DNA of 45,207 nucleotides, from positions 1 through 45,207 of the forward strand of contig JAJYUU010000013.1 of the NCBI GenBank assembly GCA_021792405.1, written 5' to 3'. Positions 5,217 to 45,207 of this stretch are shown here, piece by piece. Position numbers and translations under genes: made by a program. The notes beneath the pieces were generated by a model that saw only the letters and a list, made by a program, of their open reading frames with translations, was not told where the DNA came from and searched no databases. Source of the stretch: Actinomycetes bacterium. Its GTDB lineage: Bacteria; Actinomycetota; Actinomycetes; Streptosporangiales; Streptosporangiaceae. Every line of letters starts with the position of its first letter. The first letter of the stretch is position 1.

Positions 5217-5222
5217 GCCTGT

Positions 5223-6361: not shown

Positions 6362-6369
6362 GACTGTCA

Positions 6370-6399
6370 CACATAGTTGACATCTTTCAGACTGTCAAC
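6370..6399 (-). promoter_or_regulatory. Strong sigma-70-type promoter with inverted-repeat operator
   Basis: On the minus strand TTGACA (6398-6393), a 17-nt spacer and TATGTG (6375-6370) form the best core promoter in the window. GTTGACA (6376-6382) and TGTCAAC (6393-6399) make an inverted repeat with a 10-nt gap that covers the -35 and spacer, a likely operator. It drives the HTH/SRPBCC genes. Confidence 0.65.
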
Positions 6400-7022: not shown

Positions 7023-7059
7023 CTGCTGGCCGGGGAGAGCCCGTTCCCGCCGGGATCGG

Positions 7060-7656: not shown

Positions 7657-7668
7657 GCTCGGAGGATA
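7657..7668 (-). promoter_or_regulatory. Putative leaderless -10 box of the methyltransferase
   Basis: TATCCT (7668-7663 on the minus strand), then 6 nt, then ATG at 7656. No ribosome binding site. The apparent GGAGG here is on the plus strand and irrelevant to this gene. Confidence 0.45.
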
Positions 7669-7777
7669 GCTGGCCGGGCCGGCCGGATCCGGCATCCGGT
7701 TCATCACGGCCGGCTGTGGGTGATCCCGGCTGGCCCTACCATGTTCTGCAGATCTTGCCTGACCCGAACGGAGGCGC

Positions 7778-9450: not shown

Positions 9451-9483
9451 CCGGGCGCGCCAGTGCCTGGCGTCAGCCGTCCG

Positions 9484-9530
9484 TGGGTGCCGATTTACTG
9501 GTGCCCCAGGCCCACCAAGTCGGCACCCAT
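9484..9530. repeat. 47-bp dispersed hairpin, copy 1
   Basis: TGGGTGCCGA (9484-9493) pairs perfectly with TCGGCACCCA (9520-9529); inside, GGTG (9500-9503) pairs with CACC (9513-9516). It lies midway between the convergent stops of the glycosyltransferase and hutH and could end transcription in both directions. A second copy of the same length, 37 of 47 positions identical, is at 41398-41444. Confidence 0.75.
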
Positions 9531-9564
9531 TTGTGCAGACTGGGCCGAGCGGCAGCGAGCACGC

Positions 9565-18178: not shown

Positions 18179-18430
18179 CGTTCCTCCTTCATCCCGGACC
18201 AGGCAGGCCTGGCATCCATATCCGGGAACCATCCACCGGACCAGGCTCGCCGGGTTCGGCGTCGTCCCCAAGGCTGCCGCCTGCTCCGCCCGGACGTCTT
18301 GAACGCAATTGCGGGGCGAGCCTAGCCGCCGCCACGACCGGCGGGTTGCAGTGGTACCTGGCCCGGATACGCTCGCATGCACAGGGCAATTCACTCGGAC
18401 CGGAACGAGGCGTTCGTCCGCGGAGGAACC
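18179..18430. promoter_or_regulatory. Divergent leader between EamA and lnt genes
   Basis: About 250 bases. On the EamA side, CCCGGA and TCCGGG enclose CCAGG-CCTG-CCTGG (within 18191-18225), a bulged hairpin just before the ribosome binding site; the same CTGGTCCGG word recurs about 45 nt upstream. No known riboswitch consensus was recognised. On the lnt side GGAGG (18422-18426) precedes GTG 18431. Confidence 0.3.
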
Positions 18431-20062
18431 GTGCGGCTGCTGAACTCGGCGCCGACCGCGCCGACGGTTGCCGTAACCGCTCGGCCGCAGCCGGGAGTGC
18501 GGCTGCGCGCGTCGCTGGCGCTGCTGACCGCGCTTGCTGGCGGGCTCGCGCTCGCCGCCGCGTTCCCTCCGGCCGGGATCTGGCCGCTGGCGGTCGTCGG
18601 GCCGGCCCTGCTCACCGTGGCGCTGTGGCAGCAGCGAGCCAGGGTAGCGGTCACCGCAAGCCTCGTGTTCGGCCTGGCCTTCTTCTTCCCGCTGCTGTCC
18701 TGGGTGGTTAACGTCGCCTGGTACGCCTGGACCGGGCTAGCCGTCGCAGAGTCGCTGATCTTCGCAGTGCTGGCCGTCGGGCTATGGCTGCTGCTGCGGC
18801 TGCGAGCCTGGCCGGTGGCAGTGGCCGGGTGGTGGGTGATGGCCGAGGCCGTGCGCGACCGGTGGCCATGGGGCGGCTTCCCGTGGGGACGGCTGGTGAT
18901 GAGCCAGGCAACGGCGCCCACGGTCCGATGGGTCGCGATCGCCGGACCGCCATTCCTGTCCTTCCTGATCGCCCTCGCCGGCGGCTGCCTGGCCTTCGTG
19001 CTGATCGGCCGGCCGGCCGTCAGGCAGCGCGGCCAGTCCTGGGCCAGGGCAAGGCTCTGGCCGGCCGCGGCATTCGCCGCCAGCGCGGCGCTGGCCTGCG
19101 CGGGCGCCCTGCTGCCCGCCGACCAGGCGACGGCGGGAGAGCCGACCGCAACCGTTGCCGCCATCCAGGGCAATGTCCCGCACGCCAGGAACCTGCCGGA
19201 CCTGCTGCGGGCCACTACTGTCACGCAGAACCATGCGGCGGCGACCCTGAAGCTCGCGGCGCGGGTGAAAAGCGGCGCGGCCCCGGCACCCGACGTGGTG
19301 ATCTGGCCGGAGAACTCGACGGACCTGGATCCTGCCTACGACCCGTTCGTCTACGACACGATTGCCGCTGCCGTGGCGGCTATCGATCGTCCCGTCCTGG
19401 TTGGCGCTGTGCTGCAGAATCCGGTCCGGAATGCTGGTCAGCTCTGGCTTCCCGGCAAGGGCCCGGTGGCGGTCTACATCAAGCGCCGGCTGGTGCCGTT
19501 CGGGGAGGTCATCCCGTTCCGGAGCCTGATCAGCGAGATCACGACGCTGCCGTCAACGCTGCAGCCGGTCAACTTCACCCCCGGCCACCGTGCTGTCGTG
19601 TTCCACCTCGGCAAAGTCAGGCTGGGCGACGTCATCTGCTATGAGGTGGGATTCGACGGCCTGGTCTCCTCCGAGATCGCCGCGGGCGCGAATCTGCTGG
19701 CGGTGCAGACGAACGACGCGACCTTCGAGATCGACGGGCAGACCGGGGAGACGCTGCAGCAACTGGCCATGGCCCGGATCCGGGCCATCGAGTACAACCG
19801 CGCCGTCGTGGTCGCCTCGACCACGGGCATCAGCGCGATCATCGCGCCGGACGGCCGGCTGCTGGTGAGCACCCGCACCTGGACTCAGGCGGAGATCGAG
19901 GCCAGGGTGCCGCTGCGCACCTCGACGACGCTGGCAGGCCGGCTCGGCGGGTGGCCCGAGGCACTGATCGCGTGGGGCACGGTTGCCGTGCTCGGCTGGG
20001 TCATCGCCAGCGAAATCCGGCGCCGCCGCGGTCGCCGATCACGGGCCCGGCCAGCAGAATAG
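18431..20062 (+). CDS. lnt: Apolipoprotein N-acyltransferase, first paralogue
   Basis: 543-aa membrane enzyme that N-acylates the lipidated cysteine of apolipoproteins. The N-terminal third holds six or so membrane helices; the C-terminal part is the nitrilase-like domain. The catalytic triad can be seen: Glu in VVIWPENSTDLDP, Lys in YIKRRLVPFGEVIPFR, Cys in VRLGDVICYEVGFDGL. GTG 18431 was chosen over ATG 18377 because of the adjacent GGAGG. The second paralogue starts 6 nt after its stop, so both are in one operon with DedA possibly following. Strong family match; which paralogue is the main Lnt is not determinable. Confidence 0.94.
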   Translation: MRLLNSAPTAPTVAVTARPQPGVRLRASLALLTALAGGLALAAAFPPAGIWPLAVVGPALLTVALWQQRARVAVTASLVFGLAFFFPLLSWVVNVAWYAWTGLAVAESLIFAVLAVGLWLLLRLRAWPVAVAGWWVMAEAVRDRWPWGGFPWGRLVMSQATAPTVRWVAIAGPPFLSFLIALAGGCLAFVLIGRPAVRQRGQSWARARLWPAAAFAASAALACAGALLPADQATAGEPTATVAAIQGNVPHARNLPDLLRATTVTQNHAAATLKLAARVKSGAAPAPDVVIWPENSTDLDPAYDPFVYDTIAAAVAAIDRPVLVGAVLQNPVRNAGQLWLPGKGPVAVYIKRRLVPFGEVIPFRSLISEITTLPSTLQPVNFTPGHRAVVFHLGKVRLGDVICYEVGFDGLVSSEIAAGANLLAVQTNDATFEIDGQTGETLQQLAMARIRAIEYNRAVVVASTTGISAIIAPDGRLLVSTRTWTQAEIEARVPLRTSTTLAGRLGGWPEALIAWGTVAVLGWVIASEIRRRRGRRSRARPAE

Positions 20063-20068
20063 GGAAAC

Positions 20069-21634
20069 GTGCGAATCCCGCGCAGCCTGCGACAGCCTAG
20101 CCGGTATGCCATATTGCTGACCGGGGGCATTCCGGTGCTGGCGTTCCCCGCAGCGAACCTCGAATACCTGGCCTGGGTCGGGCTGGTGCCGGGCCTCGCG
20201 CTGATGCGCGCGGCGCCGACCAGGCGGGAGGCGGCGGTCCGCGGCTGGTGGTTCGGGGCCGGCTACCTGCTCGCCGCGATGTACTGGCTGGCGCCCAATA
20301 TCGGCCCGGCACTGCTGCTGGTAGCGGTCGTCATGGGCTGCCTGTGGACCGCGGTCGGAGTCGCTACCTGGTCATTCCTGCGTCCCCCGGTCACCGCCGC
20401 CCGCGCCGCGGCGGCGTTCGCGGTGGTGCCAAGCTGCTGGCTCACCACCGAGTGGATCAGGTCCTGGCAGGGTCTCGGCGGCCCGTGGGCGGTTTTCGGC
20501 GCCAGCCAGTGGCAGCACCCGGCGGTTCTCGCCCTCGCCGCGGTCGGGGGCGTATGGCTGATCAGCTTCGCCCTGGTGGCGTCGAACACCGCTGTGCTGA
20601 TAGCGCTGGCGGCAAAGCGGTCAGCCGTCCGGCTGGGCGGTCTCGCGGCCGCGCTGGCCGCCGTCGCGGCCGGCCCGGTAGCCCTCGCGCTGGCCGCTCC
20701 GGTGCCCGCTGGGCAGCCGCTGACGATCGCGCTGGTCCAGCCAGGCCTGACCAGCAATGCCGTGCTACGACTGCGGCGGAACGAGCAGCTTACGGCCAGC
20801 CGGGCCGGCCGGGCCGGCCTGTTCGTCTGGGGCGAGAGCAGCGTCGGCTACGACCTGCCCACCCATCCGGTCCTGCTGAGGTCCATCGAGCACCTGTCGG
20901 CTAAAGCCGGAGCCGAGGTCCTGGTCGACCAGGACGCGCTGAACCCGGCCGGCGCCCAGTCCAAGCAGGCCACCCTGATCAGCGCAACCGGAATCAAGGG
21001 CAGCTACGTCAAGACGCGGCTGGTCCCGTTTGGCGAGTACATCCCGTTCCGGTCGGTACTCGGCTGGCTCACCAAGATCAGCCGTGCTGCGCCCAGGAAC
21101 GTGGTGCCAGGCACTGGCGCGCACGTCCTGCACCTGACCCTGCCTGACGGCCGCCCGCTGACGGTCGGCGTACTGATCTGCTTTGAATCCGCGTTCCCGG
21201 ACATGTCGAGGGTGGATGCCGATCGCGGCGCACGGGTGATCATCTACCAGACGTCCGATTCCACCTTCCAGAACAGCTGGGAGCCGGCCCAGCACGCCGC
21301 GCTCAGCGCGGTGCGCGCCGCCGAGACCGGCAGGCCAGTCGTCCAGGCGGCGCTGACCGGCGACTCGGCGGCGTTCGACGCCCGCGGCCGGACTCTGGCC
21401 TGGGCCGGGACGGGCTACCGTGGCGTGCTCCTGGTCCACCTCGACCTGCCGCCCGCGTGGTACCGGACGCCGTTCGACCAGATCGGCGACGTCGTCCCGT
21501 GGACGGCGGTCGCGATCGCTGCGCTGGCGGCGCTGGCCGGGCTCCGCCGGGAGGCATCTTCCCGCCGCGGGCCTCGGGGGCAGGCCACAGCACCGGACAC
21601 CGAAGCCCTGACCGGTACCCGGCTGCCCGGCTGA
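20069..21634 (+). CDS. lnt: Apolipoprotein N-acyltransferase, second paralogue
   Basis: 521-aa Lnt homologue, clearly diverged from its upstream neighbour. The membrane N-terminus (LAFPAANLEYLAWVGLVPGL) is followed by the nitrilase domain with all three catalytic residues: Glu in LFVWGESSVGYDL (WGES in place of the usual WPEN), Lys in YVKTRLVPFGEYIPFR, Cys in VGVLICFESAFPD. The final helix lies near residues 475-495. GTG 20069 has AGGGAAAC upstream. The two tandem genes may differ in acyl donor or lipoprotein substrate, as in actinomycetes that carry two Lnt proteins; alternatively one could act on a non-lipoprotein amine. Confidence 0.92.
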   Translation: MRIPRSLRQPSRYAILLTGGIPVLAFPAANLEYLAWVGLVPGLALMRAAPTRREAAVRGWWFGAGYLLAAMYWLAPNIGPALLLVAVVMGCLWTAVGVATWSFLRPPVTAARAAAAFAVVPSCWLTTEWIRSWQGLGGPWAVFGASQWQHPAVLALAAVGGVWLISFALVASNTAVLIALAAKRSAVRLGGLAAALAAVAAGPVALALAAPVPAGQPLTIALVQPGLTSNAVLRLRRNEQLTASRAGRAGLFVWGESSVGYDLPTHPVLLRSIEHLSAKAGAEVLVDQDALNPAGAQSKQATLISATGIKGSYVKTRLVPFGEYIPFRSVLGWLTKISRAAPRNVVPGTGAHVLHLTLPDGRPLTVGVLICFESAFPDMSRVDADRGARVIIYQTSDSTFQNSWEPAQHAALSAVRAAETGRPVVQAALTGDSAAFDARGRTLAWAGTGYRGVLLVHLDLPPAWYRTPFDQIGDVVPWTAVAIAALAALAGLRREASSRRGPRGQATAPDTEALTGTRLPG

Positions 21635-23884: not shown

Positions 23885-26005
23885 ATGGTCATGACGCCGG
23901 CACCAGCGGGTTTCACCGCGAACTGGCTCGGCCAGCGGGTCGTCTTCGCCGACGGCGCGCTCGGCCGGCTCGCGGACGAGGCCGCGGTACTCGGCGCTCA
24001 GCGCGTGCTGCTCATCGGCCGGCCGGGCGTGGCATCCGACCGCGCCGCCGGGCTGCTGGCCGACCGTCTCGCTGGCCGCTTCGGTGACGTCCGGCAGCAT
24101 GTGCCGGGCGAACTGGCCGCGGCGGTGGCCGGCGAAGCGCGGCGAGTGCGGGCGGACGCGATCGTCAGCATCGGCGGCGGCAGCGCTACCGGGCTGGCCA
24201 AGGTCTGCGCGCTGGCGACGATGCGGCCGGTGCTGGCCGTTCCCACGACCTATGCCGGATCCGAGATGACGCCGGTCTGGGGTCGCACTGACGGCGGGGT
24301 CAAGCGAACCGGCCGGGATATCCGGGTACTGCCCCGCACCGTCATTTACGACCCGCTGCTGCTGGCCGGCCTGCCGGCCGCGGTTGCCGGGCCGAGCGGC
24401 ATGAACGCGCTCGCGCACTGCGTCGAAGCACTGTACGCGCCGGGTGCGGACCCGCTGACCAGCTTGTCCGCTCTGGACGGCGCGCGGCTGATCGCGGCCT
24501 GGCTGCCGGCGGCGTCCTCGGCACCCGATCAGGACGCGGTGCGCGCGCTGCTGTGGGCGTCCTGCCTGGCCGGCCGCGCGTTCGGCACCGTCGGCGGCGC
24601 TTTGCACCATACCCTGTGCCACCTGCTCGGCGGCTTTGCCTCGCTGCCGCACGCGCCGACGCATGCGGTCGTGCTGCCGCAGGTTGTGGCGTTTCTCGCG
24701 CCCGCGCTGGGGTCCGAGCTAGCCCTGCTCGCGCAAGCGCTCGGCACATCGCCAGCCGACGTGCCGGGCGCAATCTGGGATCTCGCCGCGAGCGCCGGGA
24801 CGCCGGCCGGCCTGCGCGCTCTCGGGCTGCCGTCCGGCAGCCTGCCGGCCATCGCGGACGCGCTCGCCGAGCGCGATCTAGCCAGCCCGCGCCCCGTCTC
24901 CCGGGCGGACGCGCTTGCCCTGGTGACCGCCGCCTGGCACGGCCTCCGCCCGTCACCGTCACCGTCACCGTCTCCCTCACCGTCACCGCCACCGCCACCG
25001 CCACCGCCACCGCCACCGCAGGGCATCCCGGGCGGTGCTGCTGGTGCCGGTCATGGCGGTAACGGCGAACGCGCCGCCGGTCCGGCAGCCGAGCCGGTGA
25101 CTGCCGCCGAACTGACCCAGAGCGTGCTGACGCGGCTTGCGGCAACGCCCGATCCACGGCTGCGCCGCATCATCACGGCGCTGGTGCGCTACCTGCACGG
25201 TTTCGTGGCCGAGGTGGGGCTGACCCGGGACGAGTGGCTCGCCGCGATCCGGTTCCTCACCGCGACCGGCCAGATTTCCGGTGACCAGCGGCAGGAGTTC
25301 ATCCTGCTGTCCGACACCCTTGGCGTCTCGATGCTGGTCGACCTGCTGGCCGGCCCGTCCGGGCAGGGCGCGGCAGGCCCGGCCACCGAGTCCACCGTGC
25401 TCGGCCCGTTCTACGTGCCGGGCAGCCCGGAGCGCGACTACGGCGCGTCCATCGCGGAGCGTCCGTCCGGCGAGCCAGCCTGGATTACCGGACGGGTGAG
25501 CGACGTCGACGGCAACCCGATCGCCGCCGCGACCCTGGACGTGTGGCAGAACGCCGATGACATGCTGTACGCGGTGCAGAACCCGGACTCGCCGCCAGGC
25601 AACCTGCGCGGGCTGTTCCGCACCAGGCACGACGGCAGCTTCGCGTTCCTCGGCGTCCGGCCCACCGACTACCCGATCCCGGCGGACGGCCCGGTCGGGC
25701 GGCTGCTCGCAGCGACCGGCCGGCACCCGTGGCGGCCCGCGCACATCCACGTCATCGTCAGCGCGCCCGGCTACCAGAGCGTCGCCACGCACATCTTCGA
25801 CTCCGGCAGCGCCTACCTGGACAGCGACGCGGTGTTCGCGGTCAAGGCGAGCCTGGTGCGCGACTTCGAGCGGCACGAGCCGAGCGCCGACGGCCTGACC
25901 GCCCCCGATGGCACTGCCGTGCCGGACGGCGTGTCACCCGGCCAGGCCTGGTACTCCCTCCGGCACGACTTCCGGCTCAGCCCGGCAGGCCGCCGCATCG
26001 GTTAA
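23885..26005 (+). CDS. Maleylacetate reductase - hydroxyquinol 1,2-dioxygenase fusion
   Basis: 706-aa bifunctional protein. Residues 1 to about 355 are a maleylacetate reductase of the iron-ADH superfamily: SIGGGSATGLAKV, PTTYAGSEMTPVWG, GMNALAHCVEALYAP, HHTLCHLLGGFASLPHAPTH. Residues about 356-400 are a Pro/Ser then poly-Pro linker from a hexanucleotide repeat, then a Gly-rich segment. The C-terminal part is an intradiol dioxygenase with helical N-domain (ELTQSVLTRL, GQISGDQRQEFILLSDTLG) and Fe(III) ligands Tyr in VLGPFYVPG, Tyr in TDYPIPADG and two His in RPAHIHVIV. Together they would convert hydroxyquinol to maleylacetate and on to 3-oxoadipate. GGAAAGG precedes ATG 23885. No hydroxyquinol-forming monooxygenase is nearby. 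The fusion order is opposite to the pathway order. Confidence 0.93.
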   Translation: MVMTPAPAGFTANWLGQRVVFADGALGRLADEAAVLGAQRVLLIGRPGVASDRAAGLLADRLAGRFGDVRQHVPGELAAAVAGEARRVRADAIVSIGGGSATGLAKVCALATMRPVLAVPTTYAGSEMTPVWGRTDGGVKRTGRDIRVLPRTVIYDPLLLAGLPAAVAGPSGMNALAHCVEALYAPGADPLTSLSALDGARLIAAWLPAASSAPDQDAVRALLWASCLAGRAFGTVGGALHHTLCHLLGGFASLPHAPTHAVVLPQVVAFLAPALGSELALLAQALGTSPADVPGAIWDLAASAGTPAGLRALGLPSGSLPAIADALAERDLASPRPVSRADALALVTAAWHGLRPSPSPSPSPSPSPPPPPPPPPPPQGIPGGAAGAGHGGNGERAAGPAAEPVTAAELTQSVLTRLAATPDPRLRRIITALVRYLHGFVAEVGLTRDEWLAAIRFLTATGQISGDQRQEFILLSDTLGVSMLVDLLAGPSGQGAAGPATESTVLGPFYVPGSPERDYGASIAERPSGEPAWITGRVSDVDGNPIAAATLDVWQNADDMLYAVQNPDSPPGNLRGLFRTRHDGSFAFLGVRPTDYPIPADGPVGRLLAATGRHPWRPAHIHVIVSAPGYQSVATHIFDSGSAYLDSDAVFAVKASLVRDFERHEPSADGLTAPDGTAVPDGVSPGQAWYSLRHDFRLSPAGRRIG
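24950..25021 (+). repeat. Hexanucleotide microsatellite encoding the fusion linker
   Basis: Twelve 6-bp units in register with the reading frame: mostly CCGTCA (Pro-Ser) in the first six, CCGCCA (Pro-Pro) in the next five, ending CCGCAG. Gain or loss of units changes linker length without shifting frame. Confidence 0.95.
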
Positions 26006-36710: not shown

Positions 36711-37361
36711 CTAGCGCCTGACGACCGCGTCCAGCATCGTCGCCCACTGGGCCACGATGCGCTCCCTGCGCCTGGAATCGTCGGCCAGCGTGTCCGCCAG
36801 CCCGAGCCCGCGGGCGAGGTCCAGCGTCGCCTGCACCGCCTCGTGAACGCCGGGCACGGACTCATCCGCCCGGAGCAGTTCGATAGCCGCCTTGTGCGCC
36901 GCCCGGCCAAGCTGAGCCTCAAGCGGCAGGACGAGGCCGCGCAACGGCTCACTGGCAGCAGCGGCCGCCCAGATCTGCATCGCCGCGCGGAACAGCGGAC
37001 CGGTGTAGAGCCGGACCAGCAGCTTCACGACGTCCCTGGTGCGCTGCTCGCCCGCCGGCAGCAACGCGGCCTCGCGCCGGATCTCCGCAAGCCGGACATC
37101 GGCCATGTGCGCCAGCGCCGCCGTCAGCAGATCCTCCCTGGTGCGGAAATAGTGCTGGGCCGCGCCCCTGGAGACGCCGGCTCTCGCAGCGATCACGGCA
37201 ACGGTGGTCCCGCTCCAGCCAAGCTCGGCGACGCAACTGACTGCCGCCTCAAGCAGCCCGGCACGAGTCGCCCAGCCCCGGTCCTGCCGCGGCTGCCTGG
37301 CTCCGGCGCTGCCCGTTCCCGCCGTGGTCGGGCTCGGGCTCTCCGGGATCTTGCGTGCCAT
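36711..37361 (-). CDS. TetR family transcriptional regulator
   Basis: 216-aa repressor. The N-terminal HTH is AAVSCVAELGWSGTTVAVIA followed by ARAGVSRGAAQHYFRTREDL, canonical for TetR. The C-terminal helical ligand domain starts around residue 90. It is the last gene of the minus-strand acyl-CoA operon (8 nt after the crotonase stop), matching AtuR or LiuR-type regulators that control such clusters, with an acyl-CoA as the likely inducer. That placement, and not the ligand pocket, is the evidence. ATG 37361. Confidence 0.9.
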   Translation of the reverse strand: MARKIPESPSPTTAGTGSAGARQPRQDRGWATRAGLLEAAVSCVAELGWSGTTVAVIAARAGVSRGAAQHYFRTREDLLTAALAHMADVRLAEIRREAALLPAGEQRTRDVVKLLVRLYTGPLFRAAMQIWAAAAASEPLRGLVLPLEAQLGRAAHKAAIELLRADESVPGVHEAVQATLDLARGLGLADTLADDSRRRERIVAQWATMLDAVVRR

Positions 37362-37369
37362 CGTCGAAG

Positions 37370-38188
37370 CTACTCAGCCGCGAAGGATGGGCGTCTTTTC
37401 TCGAGGAACGCCCGCATTCCTTCGACGGCTTCCGCCGACCCGAACAGTCGTGCCGACAACTCCGCGAGCGCTGCTGCCCTGGTGTCGAATCCGTCCAGTA
37501 CGGCAGTTGTCAGCAGGGACTTCGTTTCCCGCAGGCCCTGTGGCGAGGCAGCCCGCAGCAAATCGAGCACGGCCGGAGTGGCCGCGCCAATGTCGGTTAC
37601 CGCCTCGGTGATCAGCCCGATCCGCGCCGCGGTCGTCGCATCGAACGTCTCGCCGGTGAGGTAGTAGCGGCTCGCTGCGCGCGGCTCCATCTTCGGCAGC
37701 GTGGTGAGCGAGATCATCGCGGCAGCCAGGCCGAGCTTCACCTCGGTGAACGCGAAGGTCGACTTCGGGCCGGCCAGCACGATGTCGCAGGCCCCGACCA
37801 GGCCGAGGCCGCCGGCCCTGGCGTGCCCGTCGATGCTGCCGACGACAGGTTTAGGCAGCATGACGATCAGCTTCAGCAGCGCCATTACTCGTGCGGCGCC
37901 GGCCCGCATGCCGCCCTGGCTGGCCTCGCTCAGGTCCGCACCCGCGCAGAACGTCGACCCGGTGTGAGTCAGCTCGACCGCGCGCACGGCGGCGTCAGCG
38001 CCGGCCGCGGTCAGCGCCCCGGTCAGCTCCGCGACCAGAGTCGCGGACAACGCGTTCCGGTTGCGCGGCGAGTTCAGCGCGATCCGCGCGATACCCCGGT
38101 CGACCGAGTACTGCACGAGCTGGTCAGCCCCGGTGCCGGGCACTGTCTCATCGGGCCCTGTCTCATCGGTCACTGTCTCATCGGTCAC
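37370..38188 (-). CDS. Enoyl-CoA hydratase/isomerase family protein (AtuE-like)
   Basis: 272-aa crotonase-fold enzyme. Oxyanion-hole segments are STFCAGADLSEAS and DGHARAGGLGLVGACDI. At the two classical catalytic Glu positions, the first (rat hydratase Glu144, in GGGCE) is Gly here, while the second (Glu164) is kept in FAFTEVKLGLA. Loss of one Glu occurs in several crotonase subgroups and makes the exact reaction uncertain; by context it would hydrate a branched glutaconyl-CoA. GTG 38188 has AGGAGG upstream overlapping the acyl-CoA dehydrogenase stop. The N-terminus has three TDET-type repeats from a 15-bp repeat. Confidence 0.85.
   Translation of the reverse strand: MTDETVTDETGPDETVPGTGADQLVQYSVDRGIARIALNSPRNRNALSATLVAELTGALTAAGADAAVRAVELTHTGSTFCAGADLSEASQGGMRAGAARVMALLKLIVMLPKPVVGSIDGHARAGGLGLVGACDIVLAGPKSTFAFTEVKLGLAAAMISLTTLPKMEPRAASRYYLTGETFDATTAARIGLITEAVTDIGAATPAVLDLLRAASPQGLRETKSLLTTAVLDGFDTRAAALAELSARLFGSAEAVEGMRAFLEKRRPSFAAE
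38141..38185 (-). repeat. 3 x 15-bp tandem repeat at the start of the crotonase gene
   Basis: CACTGTCTCATCGGT three times (38141-38155, 38156-38170, 38171-38185; each of the first two units has one mismatch), in frame, encoding TDET-like units. Confidence 0.9.
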
Positions 38189-38198
38189 TGGGCGCCTC

Positions 38199-39356
38199 CT
38201 AATAGGACTTCGGCAGGCCGAGGGAGTGCTGCGCCACGAAGTTGAGTATCATCTCCCGGCTGACCGGGGCGATCCTGGTTGTGCGCACGTTCGCTAGCAT
38301 CGCGGCAAGGCCGACTTCGCTGGTCATCGAGCTGCCGCCGAGCGACTGGATGGCCTGGTCCACAACCCGGATGCTGGCCTCGGCTGCGGCGTACTTGGCC
38401 ATGTTCGCAGCCTCCCCGGCGGCCATATCGTCACCAGCGTCATAGAGCACGGCTGCCTTTTGCATCATCAGCCTGGCCAGTTCCAGCTCGATCTTGACCT
38501 GAGCGAGCGGATGCGCCAGACCCTGGTGCGCGCCGATCGGCACGCTCCACACCGTGCGCTCCTTTGCATAGCCGACCGCCTTGGCCAGCGCGTACCTGGC
38601 GGAACCGACGGCCATCGCCGAGGCCATGATCCGTTCCGGATTAAGCCCGGCGAACAGCTGCAGCAAGGCCGCGCCTTCCTCGCCGACAAGCGCATCAGCG
38701 GGCAGCCTGACCTCGTCCAGGAACAGCAGGTGCTGCTTCTCAGGCATGAGGACGTCCATCTCGAGCGGCTGGAAGCTGAAGCCCGGCGCATCGGTCGGCA
38801 CCGCGAACAAGGCCGGCCGCAGCGTTCCGGTCTTGCTGTCCGCCGTCCGGCCGACGATCAGCACCGCCTCGGCTTCGTCGACGCCGGAGATGTAGATCTT
38901 GCGTCCGGTCAGCACCCAGCTATCGCCGTCGCGGGTCGCGACCGTAGTCAGCTTGTGCGCGTTCGAGCCAGCGTCCGGCTCGGTGATGCCGAAGGCCATG
39001 ATGGCGGATCCGCTGGCGATCTTCGGCAGCCAGCGCTGCTTTTGCTCCGGCGTGCCGAACCGGGCGAGGATCGTTCCGCAGATCGCCGGCGAGACGACCA
39101 TCATGAGCAATCCGCAGCCGGCCGCGGCTAGCTCTTCGAGCACGATCGACAGCTCGTACAGGCCGGCGCCGCCACCGCCGTACTCAGCCGGCAGGTTAAC
39201 GCCGATGAAACCCAGCGCGCCGGCCTCCTGCCAGAGCTCGGTCAGCCGACCGCCGGTGCGGGCCTGCCGGGTGAAGTAGGCGTAGCCGTACTTGCGCCCG
39301 AGGTCCGCCACCGCGGCCCGGAGCGCGACTTGCTCGTCGGTCTCGGTGAAGTTCAC
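38199..39356 (-). CDS. Acyl-CoA dehydrogenase (AtuD/isovaleryl-CoA type)
   Basis: 385-aa FAD flavoenzyme. LPAEYGGGGAGLYELSIVLE is the N-terminal helical block; AFGITEPDAGSNAHKLTT contains the FAD/substrate-binding TEPxAGS; WVLTGRKIYISGVDEAEAVL is the middle beta domain. The C-terminal MCAD-type Glu is absent (RIAPVSREMILNFVAQH), but Glu241 in GLNPERIMAS sits where isovaleryl-CoA dehydrogenase has its base, pointing to branched substrates. Start ATG 39356 overlaps the carboxylase stop by 4 nt (ATGA). It is the fourth gene of the operon. Confidence 0.93.
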   Translation of the reverse strand: MNFTETDEQVALRAAVADLGRKYGYAYFTRQARTGGRLTELWQEAGALGFIGVNLPAEYGGGGAGLYELSIVLEELAAAGCGLLMMVVSPAICGTILARFGTPEQKQRWLPKIASGSAIMAFGITEPDAGSNAHKLTTVATRDGDSWVLTGRKIYISGVDEAEAVLIVGRTADSKTGTLRPALFAVPTDAPGFSFQPLEMDVLMPEKQHLLFLDEVRLPADALVGEEGAALLQLFAGLNPERIMASAMAVGSARYALAKAVGYAKERTVWSVPIGAHQGLAHPLAQVKIELELARLMMQKAAVLYDAGDDMAAGEAANMAKYAAAEASIRVVDQAIQSLGGSSMTSEVGLAAMLANVRTTRIAPVSREMILNFVAQHSLGLPKSY

Positions 39357-41371
39357 TGTGCGTTCTCAACCTTCACTCCGGCGTCCTCCTGCGGCTTGAC
39401 CACGGCGAGCACGGCGCCCACCACGACTTGCTGGCCCGCCGATACCGGCAGTTCAGCGACTATTCCTGCGGCCGGGGCCGAGATCACGTGCTCCATCTTC
39501 ATCGCCTCCAGCCAGAGCAGCGGCTGGCCGGCCAGGACCTGATCGCCCGCCGCCACGCCGATCCTGGCCACGACGCCCGGCATCGGCGCCAGCAGCGACC
39601 CGGTGACCGCCTGGCCGGCCGCCACGGCGAACCGGCCGACCGGCCGGAGCGCTACTGGCCCGAGCGCTGAGTCGACGCATGTCAGTCCCGGGTAAGCCGC
39701 GATCTGGAACCGGTACAGCAGGCCGGCGATGTCGAGTTCAACCAGGTCGGGCGACATCGAGACCAGCCGTATATCGTCACGTCCCTCGACGAGCAGCGCC
39801 CCGCGTTCGATCCGGTAGCTGGCCCGGTACCGGCTGGTCGTCCAGCCCTGACCGCCGGCCTGCGCGTACTCCTTGCGCTGGAACTCTGACGGCAGGTTGC
39901 GCCAGCCGGACGGCAGCCCGCCGAGCACCCTGGCCCGGACCTGCCGGCCGGCCGCATCGGCGAGCGCCGCCGCCAGCGCGGACAACTCGCCGGCCTGCCC
40001 GGCCGCCAGCGGGGCGGCAAGGTGATCGAGCCCGTGCCGGTCCAGGAACCCGGTGTCGGTCTGCCCGGCCAGGAATGCCGGATGCCGCAAGACCCGCACC
40101 AGCAGGTCCCGGTTCGTGATCAGGCCGTGAATGCGGGAGCGGGCCAGGGCACCGGCAAGCGCTGCAGCCGCCTGGACCCGGTCCGGCGCCCAGCAGATCA
40201 CCTTGGCCAGCATCGGGTCGTAGCGGGTGCCGACGTCGCTGCCATCGGCAACACCGGAGTCCAGGCGCAGCCCGTACCGCGGCAATCCGTGCACCGCGAA
40301 CTCGGCGAGCACTCCGGGCACCTCGAACCTGTGCAGGGTTCCGCTCTGCGGCTGCCAGCCCGCCGCCGGATCCTCGGCGTACAGACGGGCCTCGATCGCG
40401 TGGCCGGTGACCTCAGGCGGCGTGGCGGCCAGCGGCAGGCCGGCTGCGACCTGTAGCTGCAGTGCGACGAGGTCCAGCCCGGTCGTACATTCGGTAACCG
40501 GGTGCTCGACCTGCAACCGGGTGTTCATCTCCAGAAAGAAGAACTGACCGGTGTCATCGGCCAGGAATTCCGCCGTTCCCGCATTGCGGTAACCGACGGC
40601 GAACGCGGCCGCCCGTGCTGCTTCCGTTAGCCGCGCCCGCAGACCGGGAATGCGCTGCGCCAGCGGCGACGGTGCCTCTTCGATGATCTTCTGGTGCCGG
40701 CGCTGGATCGAGCACTCGCGCTCGCCGACTGTCCATACGGTGCCGTAGGCGTCGGCCATGATCTGGACCTCGACGTGCCGGCCAGCCTCCAGGTATGGCT
40801 CGCAGAACACCGCCGGATCGCCGAACGCCGCTGCGGCCTCGGATCGCGCGGCCGCAAGCCCGGCCGGCAACTCGGCCATGGTACGCACGACGCGCATGCC
40901 CCGGCCGCCGCCGCCCGCCGATGCCTTGATCAGCACCGGGAGGTCGGCCTCGGTCAGCGCGTCCGGCGAAAGCTCCGGCAGGACCGGCACGCCCGCCGCG
41001 GCCATGAGCCGCTTCGACTCGATCTTGCTGGCCATCGCCTCGATCGCGGCAGGCGGCGGCCCGATCCAGGTCAGGCCGGCCTGCTGCACCGCGCGGGCGA
41101 AAGCCGCGTTCTCCGACAGGAACCCGTAACCGGGATGGACCGCGTCCGCGCCGGACCGGCGCGCCGCATCGATCAGCACGTCGGCCCGCAGGTAGGTGTC
41201 GGCGGCTGCGGCGCCGGGCAGCCGGACGGCCACGTCGGCCTCGGCTACGTGCGGCGAGCCGCGGTCGGCGTCGGAGTAGACCGCGACCGTCGACAGCCCC
41301 AGCTGACGGCAGGTTCGGAACACCCGGCGGGCGATCTCGCCCCGGTTCGCCACCAGTACCCGGCTCAGCAT
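39353..41371 (-). CDS. Acyl-CoA carboxylase alpha subunit (biotin carboxylase-BCCP fusion)
   Basis: 672-aa biotin-dependent carboxylase subunit. Biotin carboxylase begins SRVLVANRGEIARRVFRTC; the ATP-grasp Gly loop is KASAGGGGRGMRVV; EMNTRLQVEHPVTE is the catalytic region. The C-terminal biotinyl domain carries Lys625 in LEAMKMEHV. By context it carboxylates a branched acyl-CoA (geranyl- or methylcrotonyl-CoA-like), with the carboxyltransferase encoded immediately upstream. ATG 41371 begins the conserved region; the longer ORF to 41521 runs through a hairpin repeat and is rejected. No strong ribosome binding site. Confidence 0.95.
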   Translation of the reverse strand: MLSRVLVANRGEIARRVFRTCRQLGLSTVAVYSDADRGSPHVAEADVAVRLPGAAAADTYLRADVLIDAARRSGADAVHPGYGFLSENAAFARAVQQAGLTWIGPPPAAIEAMASKIESKRLMAAAGVPVLPELSPDALTEADLPVLIKASAGGGGRGMRVVRTMAELPAGLAAARSEAAAAFGDPAVFCEPYLEAGRHVEVQIMADAYGTVWTVGERECSIQRRHQKIIEEAPSPLAQRIPGLRARLTEAARAAAFAVGYRNAGTAEFLADDTGQFFFLEMNTRLQVEHPVTECTTGLDLVALQLQVAAGLPLAATPPEVTGHAIEARLYAEDPAAGWQPQSGTLHRFEVPGVLAEFAVHGLPRYGLRLDSGVADGSDVGTRYDPMLAKVICWAPDRVQAAAALAGALARSRIHGLITNRDLLVRVLRHPAFLAGQTDTGFLDRHGLDHLAAPLAAGQAGELSALAAALADAAGRQVRARVLGGLPSGWRNLPSEFQRKEYAQAGGQGWTTSRYRASYRIERGALLVEGRDDIRLVSMSPDLVELDIAGLLYRFQIAAYPGLTCVDSALGPVALRPVGRFAVAAGQAVTGSLLAPMPGVVARIGVAAGDQVLAGQPLLWLEAMKMEHVISAPAAGIVAELPVSAGQQVVVGAVLAVVKPQEDAGVKVENAQ

Positions 41372-41397
41372 GGCCGCCGGCCCGGCGAGGTGAGCAA

Positions 41398-41444
41398 TGG
41401 GTGCCGATCTAGTGGGCTTCCAGCGCCACCATTTCGGCACCCAT
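41398..41444. repeat. 47-bp dispersed hairpin, copy 2
   Basis: TGGGTGCCGA (41398-41407) and TCGGCACCCA (41434-41443) pair perfectly, extended to 11 bp by flanking A/T (41397, 41444); inside, GTGG (41412-41415) pairs with CCAC (41426-41429). It stands 27 nt after the carboxyltransferase stop and 25 nt before the next ATG, inside the operon. Same length as copy 1 at 9484-9530. Confidence 0.75.
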
Positions 41445-41471
41445 GGGAGACAAGCCAGCCCGTCATTGCAG

Positions 41472-43070
41472 TCACATCCGGAATACGCCGTAGCCGGCCG
41501 TGCCGCGGACCGGGGCGCCATGGACGACCGACAGGCACAGGCCGAGCACGGTGCGGGTGTCGCGCGGATCGATGATGCCGTCGTCGTAGATCCGGCCGGA
41601 CAGGAACATCGGCAGCGACTCGGCCTCGATCTGTGCCGCTACCGCCTCCTTCATGGCCGCGTCGGCATCTTCGTCGAACGGCCGCCCGGCGGCTTGCGCC
41701 GCGGCCCTTGACACGATCGACAGCACGCCGGCCAGCTGGGCGGGGCCCATCACGGCCGACTTGGCGCTCGGCCAGGCGAACAGGAAGCGCGGGTCATAGG
41801 CGCGACCGCACATCCCGTAGTGCCCGGCCCCGTAAGACGCGCCCATCAGGATCGAGATGTGCGGAACCGCGGAGTTCGACACCGCGTTGATCATCATCGC
41901 GCCGTGCTTGATGATGCCGGCCTGCTCGTACTGGCTGCCGACCATGTAGCCGGTGGTGTTGTGCAGGAAGATCAGCGGCGTATCCGCCTGGTTGGCGAGC
42001 TGGATGAACTGCGCCGCCTTCTGCGATTCGGCACTGAACAAAATCCCTCGGGCATTGGCCAGGATGCCGACCGGGTAGCCATGCACGTTCGCCCAGCCTG
42101 TCACCAGGCTGGTCCCGTACGCAGGCTTGAACTCGTCGAAATCCGAGTCGTCCACGACTCGCGCGATCACCTCGCGCGGATCGAACGGGATCCGCAGATC
42201 CGGTGGCACGATGCCGAGAAGCTGGCCGGGATCGTAACGCGGCGGTGCAGGCGGGGCGACCGGCCTGGGACCATGCTTGCGCCAGTTCAGCCGGGCCACG
42301 ATCCGGCGGCCGATGCGGATCGCGTCCTGCTCGTCGGCGGCCAGGTAGTCGGCGAGGCCGGAGGTCCGGGCGTGCATCTGAGCGCCGCCGAGCGACTCCT
42401 CGTCGGATTCCTCGCCAGTGGCCATCTTGACCAACGGCGGCCCGCCGAGAAAGACCTTCGAGCGCTTCTCGATCATCACCACGTGGTCGGACATGCCAGG
42501 CAGGTAGGCGCCGCCGGCGGTAGAGTTGCCGAACACGATGGCGATCGTCGGGATGCCCGCCGCTGACAGCCGGGTAAGGTCACGGAACGTCCGGCCACCC
42601 GGGATGAAGATCTCCTTCTGCGTCGGCAGGTCGGCGCCGCCAGACTCGACCAGGGAGATCACCGGCAGCCGGTTGGCCAGTGCGATGTCATGCGCGCGGA
42701 AGCTCTTGCGCACCGTCCACGGGTTGCTGGTGCCGCCGCGAACCGTCGGGTCGCTCCCGGAGATCAGGCACTCGGTGCCCTCGACCACCCCGATTCCGGT
42801 CACGATGCTCGCGCCGACAGCGAACTCGGTTCCCCACGCCGCGAGCGGCGACAGTTCCAGGAACGGGCTATCTGGGTCGAGCAGCAGTTCAATCCGCTCG
42901 CGGACACCGAGCTTGCCCCTGGCCCGGTGCCGCTCGACGTATCGGGGCCCACCGCCCGCGAGCGCCTTGGCCTGCTCGGCCTCGATCTCGGCCAGCTTGA
43001 CGATCATGGCTTCGGCGTTCGCGGCGTAGGCGGCGGAGGTCTCGTCGAGCGCCGAGGCCAGGACGGTCAC
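41472..43070 (-). CDS. Acyl-CoA carboxylase carboxyltransferase subunit (AtuC/LiuB/AccD type)
   Basis: 532-aa carboxyltransferase with two crotonase-like halves. N-half: GKLGVRERIELLLDPDSPFL, GSDPTVRGGTSNPWTVRKS, LPVISLVESGGADLPTQKEI, IVFGNSTAGGAYLPGM. C-half: YGTSLVTGWANVHGYPVGIL, PLIFLHNTTGYMVGSQYEQ, ISILMGASYGAGHYGMCGRA, FAWPSAKSAVMGP. These blocks are characteristic of methylcrotonyl-/geranyl-CoA carboxylase beta subunits. GTG 43070 overlaps the atuA-like stop (GTGA). The 779-aa ORF reaching 43811 reads the upstream gene in the wrong frame. Works with the alpha subunit downstream. Confidence 0.95.
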   Translation of the reverse strand: MTVLASALDETSAAYAANAEAMIVKLAEIEAEQAKALAGGGPRYVERHRARGKLGVRERIELLLDPDSPFLELSPLAAWGTEFAVGASIVTGIGVVEGTECLISGSDPTVRGGTSNPWTVRKSFRAHDIALANRLPVISLVESGGADLPTQKEIFIPGGRTFRDLTRLSAAGIPTIAIVFGNSTAGGAYLPGMSDHVVMIEKRSKVFLGGPPLVKMATGEESDEESLGGAQMHARTSGLADYLAADEQDAIRIGRRIVARLNWRKHGPRPVAPPAPPRYDPGQLLGIVPPDLRIPFDPREVIARVVDDSDFDEFKPAYGTSLVTGWANVHGYPVGILANARGILFSAESQKAAQFIQLANQADTPLIFLHNTTGYMVGSQYEQAGIIKHGAMMINAVSNSAVPHISILMGASYGAGHYGMCGRAYDPRFLFAWPSAKSAVMGPAQLAGVLSIVSRAAAQAAGRPFDEDADAAMKEAVAAQIEAESLPMFLSGRIYDDGIIDPRDTRTVLGLCLSVVHGAPVRGTAGYGVFRM

Positions 43071-44896
43071 GGTGTTATCCCCGGGGACGACCCCTGGACC
43101 CCGGCGAGTAGGGCCTCGGGCACATCGAGGTAACGAGAGCGGAGCCACTCGCCGACTGCCTTGGCCTGCGGGTCGAAGCGCGCCGCTGCGGCAACGCCCT
43201 GGCCGAGCAGTCCCTCGATCACGAAGTTGACCGCGCCCAGGTTGGGCAGCAGGTGCCTGGTCACCGGCAGCCCGGCCGCCTCGGGCAGCAACTCGCGAAG
43301 TTTGCCGACGGTCAGCGTGCTGGCCAGCCACGGCCAAGCTGCCGCGTTCCTGGCCCAGACCCCGACGTTGGCGTCCCCGCCCTTGTCGCCGCTGCGCGCA
43401 CCCGCCACCGCGCCGAGCGGAACGCGGCGCACCGGACCGCTGCCTGCCCACTCCCCCGGCCCGGCGAACTCGGCCGGTATCGCCGGCCCAGTTGCCGCCG
43501 GCCCAGCCGATGCCAGCACAGTCGTGGCTACGTCGGGCACCTCGACGGACTCCCCGGCCGGCAGCACTGCGATTTGCCGCACCTGCGCCCGGTCGAGGTA
43601 ACCGGCCGTGAAGACCCCGTAGGGCTGGGCCTCTCCCGGCGGCGCCGTCATGTGAAAGCCTGGGTAGCTGGCCAGCGCGAGCTCGACCGCGGCTCCTGAG
43701 AACGCCCGGCCGATCGCCGTGGCGTCGCTGCCGCGAGCCACGCAGCGCAACGTCGCGCTGGCCGCCTCCTCGGTCGGCGCATCGGCGTGATCGGTGCGGG
43801 CGAGCTCCCACTCCACCCCGGCCGGCAGGGCCGCGGCAAGCTGCTCCCGCACAAGCCGTGCCTTCGCCTCGATATCCAGTCCGGTCAGCACAAACTCGAC
43901 CTGGTTACGATAACCACCGAGGGAATTCAGCGACACTTTGAGCGTGGGCGGCGCCGGCTCGCCGCGCACCCCGCTGATCGCGACCCGGTCCGGGCCGTCC
44001 TGGCGGAGCTGCACGCTGTCCAGCCGGAGCGTCGCGTCCGGTCCCGGATACCGCGGACCGGCGACCTCGTACAACAGCTGTGCGGTGACCGTGCCCACTG
44101 TCACGGCACCGCCGGTACCCGGATGCTTGGTGATCACGCTGGAACCGTCGGCGAAGATCTCGGCGATCGGGAAGCCCGGATGACGCAGATCGGCGATCTC
44201 GGTGAAGAACGCGTAGTTGCCGCCGGTCGCCTGCGCGCCGCACTCGATCACGTGCCCGGCCGCCATCGCCCCGGCGATCGCGTCGAAATCCGTCAGTTCC
44301 CAGCCGAAGTGCGCGGCGGCCGGCCCGACTACCAGCGACGCGTCGGTCACCCGGCCGGTGACGACTACGTTCGCGCCGGCCTGCAGGCAGGCTGCAATCC
44401 CCCAGCCGCCGAGGTAGGCGTTGGCCGCGACTACGTCGCCGTAGCCCAGTTCGGGTGCGCGTGGCAGCAGATCGTCACCGTGCACGTAGCCGATCTTCGG
44501 GTCCAGGCCGAGCCGCGCCGCCAGGTCCCCGATCGCGGCGGCCAGGCCTGCCGGGTTCAGCCCGCCCGCGTTCGCGACGATCGCCACGCCCTTCTCGAGC
44601 GCGAGCCCCAGACAGTCCTCAAGCTGTCGGAGGAACGTTCGCGCGTAGCCGAGGCGCGGATCCCGCAGCCGGTCCCGGCCGAGGATGAGCATCGTTAGCT
44701 CGGCCAGGTAATCGCCGGTCAGCACGTCCAGCTCGCCGCCCTCGAGCATCTCCCGCATCGCCGCGAACCGGTCGCCGTAGAAACCGGAGGCGTTGCCGAT
44801 CCTGATCCGGGCCGGATCCGCGTCCGGCCGTGCCTCACTGCCTGACGCGGACGCACTGCCTGACGCGGACGCACTGGCCGATCCGGTCACTGGCAC
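43067..44896 (-). CDS. AtuA-like (DUF1446) protein
   Basis: 609-aa protein of the acyclic terpene utilization AtuA family. Conserved blocks: IRIGNASGFYGDRFAAMREM, VLTGDYLAELTMLILGRD, VANAGGLNPAGLAAAIGDLA, YGDVVAANAYLGGWGIAACL, VVTGRVTDASLVVGPAAAHF, and in the C-terminal region GARSGDKGGDANVGVWARN. AtuA is essential for citronellol/geraniol breakdown in Pseudomonas but its biochemical role is not settled. GTG 44896 has AAAGGTGAT 7 nt upstream. The N-terminus has Ser-Ala-Ser repeats from an 18-bp tandem repeat. First gene of the six-gene operon. Confidence 0.9.
   Translation of the reverse strand: MPVTGSASASASGSASASGSEARPDADPARIRIGNASGFYGDRFAAMREMLEGGELDVLTGDYLAELTMLILGRDRLRDPRLGYARTFLRQLEDCLGLALEKGVAIVANAGGLNPAGLAAAIGDLAARLGLDPKIGYVHGDDLLPRAPELGYGDVVAANAYLGGWGIAACLQAGANVVVTGRVTDASLVVGPAAAHFGWELTDFDAIAGAMAAGHVIECGAQATGGNYAFFTEIADLRHPGFPIAEIFADGSSVITKHPGTGGAVTVGTVTAQLLYEVAGPRYPGPDATLRLDSVQLRQDGPDRVAISGVRGEPAPPTLKVSLNSLGGYRNQVEFVLTGLDIEAKARLVREQLAAALPAGVEWELARTDHADAPTEEAASATLRCVARGSDATAIGRAFSGAAVELALASYPGFHMTAPPGEAQPYGVFTAGYLDRAQVRQIAVLPAGESVEVPDVATTVLASAGPAATGPAIPAEFAGPGEWAGSGPVRRVPLGAVAGARSGDKGGDANVGVWARNAAAWPWLASTLTVGKLRELLPEAAGLPVTRHLLPNLGAVNFVIEGLLGQGVAAAARFDPQAKAVGEWLRSRYLDVPEALLAGVQGSSPGITP
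44836..44880 (-). repeat. 2.5 x 18-bp tandem repeat at the start of the AtuA-like gene
   Basis: CACTGCCTGACGCGGACG at 44836-44853 and 44854-44871 followed by a partial third copy; encodes Ser/Ala/Gly-rich repeats. Confidence 0.88.
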
Positions 44897-44929
44897 GAGG
44901 CGATCACCTTTCAAGCTTGGCCAGAACCA

Positions 44930-44935
44930 AGCATA
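44930..44935 (-). promoter_or_regulatory. Putative -10 box of the atu-like operon
   Basis: TATGCT on the minus strand would start transcription near 44923, giving a leader of about 27 nt with the AAAGGTGAT ribosome binding site. No good -35 was found. Confidence 0.35.
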
Positions 44936-45207
44936 AGTGATTGTTTTGTGGCCTGCCGCTGCCACCGCATCGCTAGACGTCAGGCATCCGCCCAGTTTCG
45001 GCTGCGGCTAACTGCCCCGCCCGACGGCACCGCCCGTGTGAGGTGAATGACCTCGCCAAGGCGACGGCCGGGCAGGGTCCCGGCTAGCTCAGGCGGCTGG
45101 GTGGTGCGGTGGCCGGGCGGGTGGCGGGTGCCCGGCTGTCTCGGGGACTGGTTTGCCGGATCGGTAGACCGTTCCGGGCCGCCAGCCTGGCGGCGGGGGG
45201 ATCGAGG
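44936..45207. other. Right-edge region without a gene
   Basis: About 270 bases with no supportable ORF. A perfect 7-bp palindrome, CCGCCAG-C-CTGGCGG (45179-45193), could be the terminator of a gene beyond the edge. The rest shows no recognisable structure. Confidence 0.4.

What the first reader, a model, noticed from the sequence alone, without database searches (positions are those of the whole stretch)
36711..44896. Compact atu/liu-like operon in an actinomycete with its regulator last
Order of transcription: AtuA, carboxyltransferase, biotin carboxylase-BCCP, acyl-CoA dehydrogenase, crotonase, TetR, all tightly spaced. This matches the core of the Pseudomonas acyclic terpene (atu) cluster but lacks AtuB, AtuG and AtuH, and no HMG-CoA lyase is seen. 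It may break down a terpenoid or another beta-methyl-branched acid.
Basis: partly seen in the sequence, partly recalled or inferred. Interest (0 to 1): 0.5.

Follow-up and report, generated by a model that had tools for sequence, protein, structure and literature searches.

The report
Actinobacterial branched-acid breakdown operon
A six-gene bacterial operon, found in many actinobacteria and probably switched by its own last gene, looks built to remove a methyl branch from terpene-like acids; its relatives include a mycobacterial operon of unknown role.

Summary
The six genes are real and in the order given. Closest kin is not the Pseudomonas atu cluster but a widespread actinobacterial operon matching the mycobacterial accD2-accA2 locus, whose role two papers leave open. 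The carboxyltransferase has the geranyl-CoA carboxylase (GCC) pocket signature: no 3-residue insertion, Gly instead of Phe; so do all 80 relatives fetched. AtuA looks like the lyase: its two domains, modelled separately, match chains A and B of one solved citramalate lyase. So no HMG-CoA lyase is needed in the operon. I also found a probable TetR operator, a 24-bp palindrome at 44924-44947 upstream of AtuA. It lies upstream of the first gene in 57 of 59 relatives with this TetR and 0 of 13 without, and at one place per genome in 8 of 8 genomes scanned. Likely function: an autoregulated pathway that desaturates, carboxylates, hydrates and cleaves a beta-methyl acyl-CoA bulkier than methylcrotonyl-CoA, releasing acetate. 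The substrate is unknown and no activity is shown. The window ends 242 bp before the AtuA frame, but a same-genus genome shows no AtuB, AtuG or AtuH there.

The parts
43067..44896 (-). atuA: fused lyase-like protein, AtuA domain (citramalate lyase chain A-like) plus C-terminal ferredoxin-like domain (chain B-like)
   Evidence: Pfam AtuA 505 bits and AtuA_ferredoxin 61 bits; fold matches 9evf_A Z 28.6, rmsd 3.5, 386 aligned and 9evf_B Z 10.7, rmsd 3.2, 101 aligned
41472..43070 (-). acyl-CoA carboxylase carboxyltransferase (AccD2-type, GCC-like pocket signature); GTG start overlaps the atuA stop
   Evidence: Carboxyl_trans; Gly at the GCC Gly162 column, no MCC insertion
41398..41443 (.). 46-bp palindromic repeat inserted between the CT and BC genes; strong hairpin
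   Evidence: 10 copies with up to 2 mismatches in this genome; not between CT and BC in G004 or L040; RNA fold -34 kcal/mol, z -5.5
39353..41371 (-). biotin carboxylase-BCCP subunit (AccA2-type)
   Evidence: Biotin_carb_N/C, CPSase_L_D2, Biotin_lipoyl; best solved relative MCC alpha 3u9s, 488 bits
38199..39356 (-). acyl-CoA dehydrogenase (FadE12-type)
   Evidence: Pfam; Glu at the position shared with the Acinetobacter atu-cluster dehydrogenase, Pro at the medium-chain-type position
37370..38188 (-). enoyl-CoA hydratase (EchA7-type, PRK07827)
   Evidence: NCBIfam over cut-off; one catalytic Glu, Gly at the other position
36711..37361 (-). TetR-family regulator
   Evidence: TetR_N; TetR homologue (tblastn over 100 bits) in 59 of 72 relatives with enough flank
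44924..44947 (-). probable TetR operator, palindrome AAAACAATCACTTATGCTTGGTTC
   Evidence: 16 of 18 consensus bases, next best site in the window 12; none in 100 shuffles; only place in the genome with up to 2 mismatches

Best explanation
An inducible catabolic operon that removes a beta-methyl branch from an acyl-CoA bulkier than methylcrotonyl-CoA. Inferred steps: (1) the dehydrogenase makes R-C(CH3)=CH-CO-CoA; (2) the carboxylase adds CO2 to the methyl (gamma) carbon; (3) the crotonase hydrates the double bond to a 3-hydroxy-3-(carboxymethyl)acyl-CoA; (4) AtuA, a fused CmlAB-type lyase, splits off the carboxymethyl group as free acetate, leaving a 3-oxoacyl-CoA for a thiolase encoded elsewhere. 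The last gene, TetR, represses the operon from the palindrome at 44924-44947 until a ligand (probably a pathway acyl-CoA) releases it. Shown here by computation: gene content, conserved operon, pocket signature, active-site residues, lyase fold, operator conservation. Not shown: any activity, the substrate, DNA binding.
For: CT: 80 of 80 relatives fetched plus the window lack the 3-residue MCC insertion and carry Gly at the GCC Gly162 column, while PaMCC, Mtb AccD1 and a Pseudonocardiaceae MCC-type CT keep DREHFGR. These are two of the sequence rules given by Jurado 2015 for telling GCC from MCC (PMC4673880, passages). Among solved chains the nine best matches (437-566 bits) are MCC- or GCC-type or carry an unspecific or propionyl label; all others are at 264 bits or less. 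CT tree: window family 100/98, next to GCC rather than MCC, but weakly (88/72). ACAD: Glu at the position shared with the Acinetobacter atu-cluster ACAD in 73 of 73, Pro at the other in 73 of 73. Crotonase: one Glu, Gly at the other position in 53 of 53, same pattern in the Acinetobacter atu-cluster crotonase. AtuA: model pLDDT 85.8; 9evf_A is the only Foldseek match with E<=0.001 (2.2e-19, next 0.024); Z 28.6, rmsd 3.5, 386 aligned, next Z 9.3. The C-terminal domain modelled alone finds 9evf_B first: Foldseek E 7.8e-3, probability 1.00; Z 10.7, rmsd 3.2, 101 of 105 residues, next Z 7.8. The depositors call chain A 'AtuA family protein, citramalate lyase subunit A'. Operator: site in 57 of 59 TetR+ loci, 0 of 13 TetR- loci, 0 of 72 reversed controls; one place per genome in 8 of 8. 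Operon: of 70 loci with enough flank, AtuA in 67, BC 70, ACAD 67.
Against: No substrate of this family was found in the papers seen. M. smegmatis lacking accD2-accA2 showed no lipid change and no extra CoA-ester peak under the conditions tried (PMC4347857, passages). Overall CT identity is higher to MCC (53%) than to GCC (45%). The third Jurado rule, an N-terminal extension absent from PCC, gave no clear answer: the window aligns with PaMCC from residue 1 and PaGCC from 4, but Mtb AccD1 only from 26, and several PCC chains from 3-11. The Pfam BT_MCC_alpha domain was found in the C136 BC but not in the window BC. The operon has no acyl-CoA synthetase or alcohol/aldehyde dehydrogenase. The match to citramalate lyase is of fold at 14-17% identity; its contact residues were not compared. 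The solved AtuE (4zu2) is only the 14th match of the crotonase. ECH was detected in 53 of 70 loci and a downstream TetR in 54 of 70. The operator consensus was drawn by eye from 8 of 10 sequences printed, two of which (L044, L063) are among the 72 counted; 11 of the 13 TetR-negative loci are one family.
Confidence: 0.6

Rival explanations
1. The operon is this genus's methylcrotonyl-CoA carboxylase, that is, the leucine/isovalerate (liu) pathway.
For: No AccD1-type MCC (77% identity or more) was found in this genome or its 8 same-genus relatives at E<=1e-100 (0 of 9, completeness 72-98%). HMG-CoA lyase is present in the genome.
Against: The MCC Phe and insertion are absent in the window and 80 of 80 relatives. 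M. smegmatis lacking accD2-accA2 grew on isovalerate like wild type (PMC4347857, passages). 9 of 15 genomes with an AccD1-type MCC also hold a second CT 50-55% identical to AccD1. HMG-CoA lyase sits beside another CT on C120.
Confidence: 0.12
2. It is a true acyclic monoterpene (citronellol/geraniol) pathway like Pseudomonas atu.
For: Same enzyme set as the atu core and same CT pocket signature. The Acinetobacter plasmid cluster (L125) shows the order AtuA-SDR-CT-ACAD-ECH-BC, which is atuABCDEF.
Against: Only 45% CT identity to GCC; no AtuB-like SDR in the operon; different gene order; wide spread among actinobacteria suggests (inference) a commoner substrate.
Confidence: 0.17
3. It is a propionyl/acetyl-CoA carboxylase, as the mycobacterial accA2/accD2 genes are often annotated.
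For: Annotation; a 2023 eLife paper discusses AccA2/D2 as probable propionyl-CoA carboxylase genes (PMC10501769, passages). The N-terminal extension test did not separate the groups.
Against: The CT groups with GCC and MCC (97/98), away from the two C120 CTs; apart from one chain labelled propionyl-CoA carboxylase (9tps, 515 bits, printed with the MCC-type loop), solved PCCs score 264 bits or less against 437-566 for the MCC/GCC-like chains; the genes are linked to an AtuA lyase and a hydratase.
Confidence: 0.05

Closest known systems
Mycobacterial accD2-accA2 operon (Rv0971c-Rv0976c in M. tuberculosis)
   Same: AtuA-FadE13-CT-BC-ACAD-ECH in all 11 Mycobacteriaceae loci fetched; CT 77-78% identical to the window; GCC-type loop. 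A paper lists echA7, fadE12, fadE13, accA2 and accD2 in the Rv0971c-Rv0976c operon (PMC9283954, passages).
   Different: Mycobacteria have an extra FadE13-like dehydrogenase and lack the linked TetR and the palindrome. The M. tuberculosis genes were not fetched; that Rv0976c is the AtuA is inferred from position and recall.
Pseudomonas/Acinetobacter atu cluster (GCC = AtuC/AtuF)
   Same: AtuA, CT, BC, ACAD, ECH; pocket Gly; no insertion; two-domain AtuA.
   Different: 45-46% CT identity; an SDR between AtuA and CT in Acinetobacter; different order; TetR divergent in L125.
liu / MCC operon
   Same: Same reaction type; 49-53% CT identity to three MCC-type CTs.
   Different: MCC Phe and DREHFGR loop absent; no HMG-CoA lyase in the operon.
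Citramalate lyase CmlAB (PDB 9erq, 9evf)
   Same: AtuA domain matches chain A and the AtuA C-terminus matches chain B in fold.
   Different: Fused in one protein; 14-17% identity; the substrate must be a CoA ester if the pathway is right.
Second atu-like cluster of the same genome (C136)
   Same: CT, BC, ECH, AtuA, TetR, ACAD; CT 68.5% identical.
   Different: Also has an MDMPI-type gene and an AMP-binding synthetase; different order; Ala instead of Gly at the pocket position.

Membership tests
Geranyl-CoA-type carboxylase (GCC beta) | Gly at the MCC Phe191 position and no 3-residue insertion | tested here: met
   Window and 80 of 80 relatives; rule from PMC4673880
Geranyl-CoA-type carboxylase (GCC beta) | Groups with characterised GCC in a tree | tested here: inconclusive
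   Sister position supported only 88/72, long branches
Geranyl-CoA-type carboxylase (GCC beta) | Carboxylates geranyl-CoA | not testable with these tools
   needs enzyme assay
Methylcrotonyl-CoA carboxylase (liu) | Phe191 with the 3-residue insertion | tested here: not met
Methylcrotonyl-CoA carboxylase (liu) | HMG-CoA lyase in the same operon | tested here: not met
   The only match over the cut-off in the genome is on C120
Propionyl-CoA carboxylase | PCC beta lacks the N-terminal extended helix | tested here: inconclusive
   Alignment starts overlap between MCC-type (1-42) and PCC-type (3-62) chains
Propionyl-CoA carboxylase | Groups apart from MCC and GCC | tested here: not met
   Window lies with MCC and GCC (97/98)
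Pseudomonas-type atu cluster | AtuA, C, D, E, F homologues together | tested here: met
Pseudomonas-type atu cluster | AtuB/AtuG dehydrogenases and AtuH synthetase in the cluster | tested here: not met
   None among the genes of the window's operon; in the same-genus G004 a DUF222/HNH gene is upstream
accD2-accA2-type operon (working definition of mine) | AtuA-CT-BC-ACAD-ECH order and high CT identity to the mycobacterial loci | tested here: met
   CT 77-78%; order; FadE13 is missing, as in 37 of 70 loci
CmlAB-type citramalate lyase | Fold of both chains | tested here: met
CmlAB-type citramalate lyase | ADP and substrate contact residues | not tested
CmlAB-type citramalate lyase | Acetate-releasing cleavage | not testable with these tools
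   needs enzyme assay

The most novel reading that the evidence does not exclude
The accD2-accA2-type operon of actinobacteria is a complete de-branching module for long isoprenoid-type acyl-CoAs (for example from phytol, menaquinone or polyprenyl chains). It uses a GCC-pocket carboxylase and ends in a fused CmlAB lyase that may use ADP/ATP. A dedicated TetR and palindrome control it in most relatives seen, and mycobacteria rewired it without them. This would give the orphan mycobacterial AccA2-AccD2 complex its reaction.
Probability: 0.3. Interest if true: 0.72.

Novelty: new variant of a known kind. Interest (0 to 1): 0.55.

Why it matters
The role of the mycobacterial AccA2-AccD2 complex was left open in 2015 (PMC4347857, passages; [quoted passage not shown]). 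The evidence here turns that into a specific prediction: gamma-carboxylation of a bulky 3-methyl-2-enoyl-CoA, then acetate release by AtuA. It also gives the AtuA of this operon a lyase fold and supplies a probable operator, so the inducer and substrate can be sought with a simple reporter.

Tried and rejected
Leucine (liu) reading: rejected as main reading on the pocket signature, kept as a rival because no AccD1-type MCC was found in this genus. 'Absence of AtuB/G/H': the contig end blocks a direct test; in G004 and in L040 (upstream gene without Pfam match) no such gene precedes AtuA. An MDMPI-type gene precedes AtuA in 43 of 70 relatives, and I wondered about a thiol-dependent isomerase step, but in this genome TIGR03084 is over its cut-off only in C136, so it is not part of this operon. 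HMG-CoA lyase co-occurrence: of 24 AtuA-positive genomes (of 41), 4 have no match at E<=1e-40 (G002, G009, G016, G028), two of them 99% complete; the enzyme is in 36 of 41, so this is weak. Sequence search of the PDB with the ortholog profile A1 found nothing at E<=0.1; a more diverse profile, A3, found 9erq_A at 5.8e-11. The Mycetohabitans ferredoxin-like protein alone had no PDB match at E<=0.1. One row of the dehydrogenase alignment (L136_x) proved to be a histidine kinase and is ignored. Searches of the paper library for 9EVF/9ERQ and 'AtuA family protein', DUF1446, and citramalate lyase/DUF4387/acetate lyase from 2016 on listed no paper on the AtuA lyase structure. One search failed for a term that was too long and was not repeated.
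Full report
What is there. The window is the whole contig C270 of a 5.39 Mb genome in 314 contigs, 98.4% complete. Two junctions overlap by GTGA, two are 8-10 bp, and the CT-BC gap is 100 bp. That gap holds a 46-bp palindromic repeat absent from this place in the two relatives checked, G004 and L040.

Whose operon it is. In the 70 of 80 loci with enough flank, AtuA is present in 67, BC in 70, ACAD in 67, ECH in 53, a downstream TetR in 54, an MDMPI-type gene in 43, a second (FadE13-like) dehydrogenase in 33 and an acyl-CoA synthetase in 26. The 11 Mycobacteriaceae loci have AtuA-FadE13-CT-BC-ACAD-ECH, which fits the gene content a paper gives for the M. tuberculosis accD2-accA2 operon (PMC9283954, passages). 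I did not fetch the M. tuberculosis locus itself. The same-genus genome G004 has the full operon, with CT 97%, ACAD 99% and AtuA 92% identical, and a DUF222/HNH gene upstream of AtuA. AtuB, AtuG and AtuH are therefore probably absent from this operon too.

What the carboxylase does. Jurado and colleagues give sequence rules: MCC has a Phe with a 3-residue insertion before it, GCC has Gly and no insertion (PMC4673880, passages). Window: EIFIPG---GRTF. PaGCC: EIFVEG---ARGF. PaMCC: EVFPDREHFGRIF. All 80 relatives follow the GCC rule. Their further rule, an N-terminal extension missing in PCC, gave no clear result. Ehebauer and colleagues had noted that this segment diverges in AccD2 and left its role open (PMC4347857, passages). 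The tree joins the window family, the C136 paralogue and a Rhodococcus plasmid CT (100/98), beside the GCC group at weak support (88/72) and apart from MCC (17 of the 80 loci plus 12 other rows; long branches are flagged by the tool and the tree was not rebuilt without them). Overall identity is higher to MCC (53%) than to GCC (45%), so substrate cannot be read from similarity.

Dehydrogenase and hydratase. The ACAD has Glu in a LNPERI motif at the position where the ACAD of the Acinetobacter atu-type cluster has it, and Pro where medium-chain enzymes carry their base, in 73 of 73 relatives with a complete gene. That isovaleryl-CoA dehydrogenase also uses the first position, and the medium-chain type the second, is recalled. 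The ECH keeps one of the two crotonase Glu residues in 53 of 53, as does the crotonase of the Acinetobacter cluster; which two residues these are is recalled. Its nearest solved relatives are two hydratases without stated substrate (4knp, 3oc7); solved AtuE ranks 14th.

AtuA looks like a lyase. A model of the window AtuA from 55 sequences (pLDDT 85.8, pTM 0.87) matches one solved protein far above all others: 9evf chain A, a citramalate lyase with ADP and pyruvate (Foldseek E 2.2e-19; Z 28.6, rmsd 3.5, 386 residues, next Z 9.3). The C-terminal domain modelled on its own (pLDDT 87.9) finds chain B of the same entry first (Foldseek E 7.8e-3; Z 10.7, rmsd 3.2, 101 of 105 residues, next 7.8). The depositors name chain A an AtuA family protein, subunit A of citramalate lyase. 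In a Mycetohabitans plasmid the two domains are separate genes beside a citrate transporter. Citramalate lyase removes a carboxymethyl group from a tertiary alcohol as acetate (established chemistry, recalled); the atu pathway needs just this on 3-hydroxy-3-isohexenylglutaryl-CoA, and the Thauera paper lists AtuA with that role among enzymes 'characterized or tentatively identified' (PMC4847356, passages). The fold is shown; the reaction in this operon is inferred.

Control. Upstream of AtuA I noticed a palindrome, AAAACAANCA-NNNN-TGNTTGTTTT, by eye in eight of ten sequences printed. In the window it scores 16 of 18 at 44924-44947, against 12 for the next site, with none in 100 shuffles. Over whole loci, 65 of 85 have a best site of at least 13, against 2 of 85 read backwards. 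Among 72 loci with flank, 57 of 59 with the TetR and 0 of 13 without it have a site of at least 13 within 450 bp upstream of the first gene (or just inside it); reversed controls 0 of 72. Two of the 72 (L044, L063) helped define the consensus, and 11 of the 13 TetR-negative loci are mycobacterial, so the association counts fewer independent events than rows. In eight whole genomes it occurs, with up to 2 mismatches, at one place each, this promoter; reversed control none. In two Actinomadura loci and G009 the TetR gene lies on the other side of the palindrome, divergent from AtuA. This points to a dedicated, autoregulating local regulator. Binding was not tested.

Rivals and limits. This genus has no AccD1-type MCC in the genomes searched (0 of 9), so a leucine role cannot be excluded from absence alone, but the signature, the mycobacterial genetics and coexistence with a second CT in 9 of 15 relatives that have such an MCC argue against it. 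The substrate stays open. Only fold, signature and synteny have been shown; no activity has.

Verdict. It is a new variant of a known kind of pathway, with a concrete, testable proposal for an orphan carboxylase family.

Noticed in passing
window 41398-41443 and 9484-9529: A 46-bp palindromic repeat (TGGGTGCCGA..TCGGCACCCA): 10 copies with up to 2 mismatches in this genome, 4 of them with perfect arms, and one or none in each of 12 relatives; one copy sits between the CT and BC genes.
   Followed up: partly
window 23885-26005: A 706-aa reading frame joins an iron-containing alcohol dehydrogenase (perhaps maleylacetate reductase-like) to an intradiol dioxygenase, apparently a fused aromatic-ring pathway enzyme.
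   Followed up: partly
window 18377-21634: Two apolipoprotein N-acyltransferase-type genes in tandem.
   Followed up: no
L009 (C136) 1-10334: A second atu-like cluster in the same genome with an MDMPI-type (TIGR03084) gene and an AMP-binding synthetase; its CT has Ala at the pocket position.
   Followed up: partly
L141 5974-7651: AtuA and its ferredoxin-like domain as two separate genes next to a citrate:proton symporter, suggesting a citrate- or citramalate-cleaving role.
   Followed up: partly
L136 13676-16495: An HMG-CoA lyase beside a carboxyltransferase with an unusual active-site loop (SAGARITDQVQMFPGRRGAGKIF), near biotin ligase and another CT.
   Followed up: no
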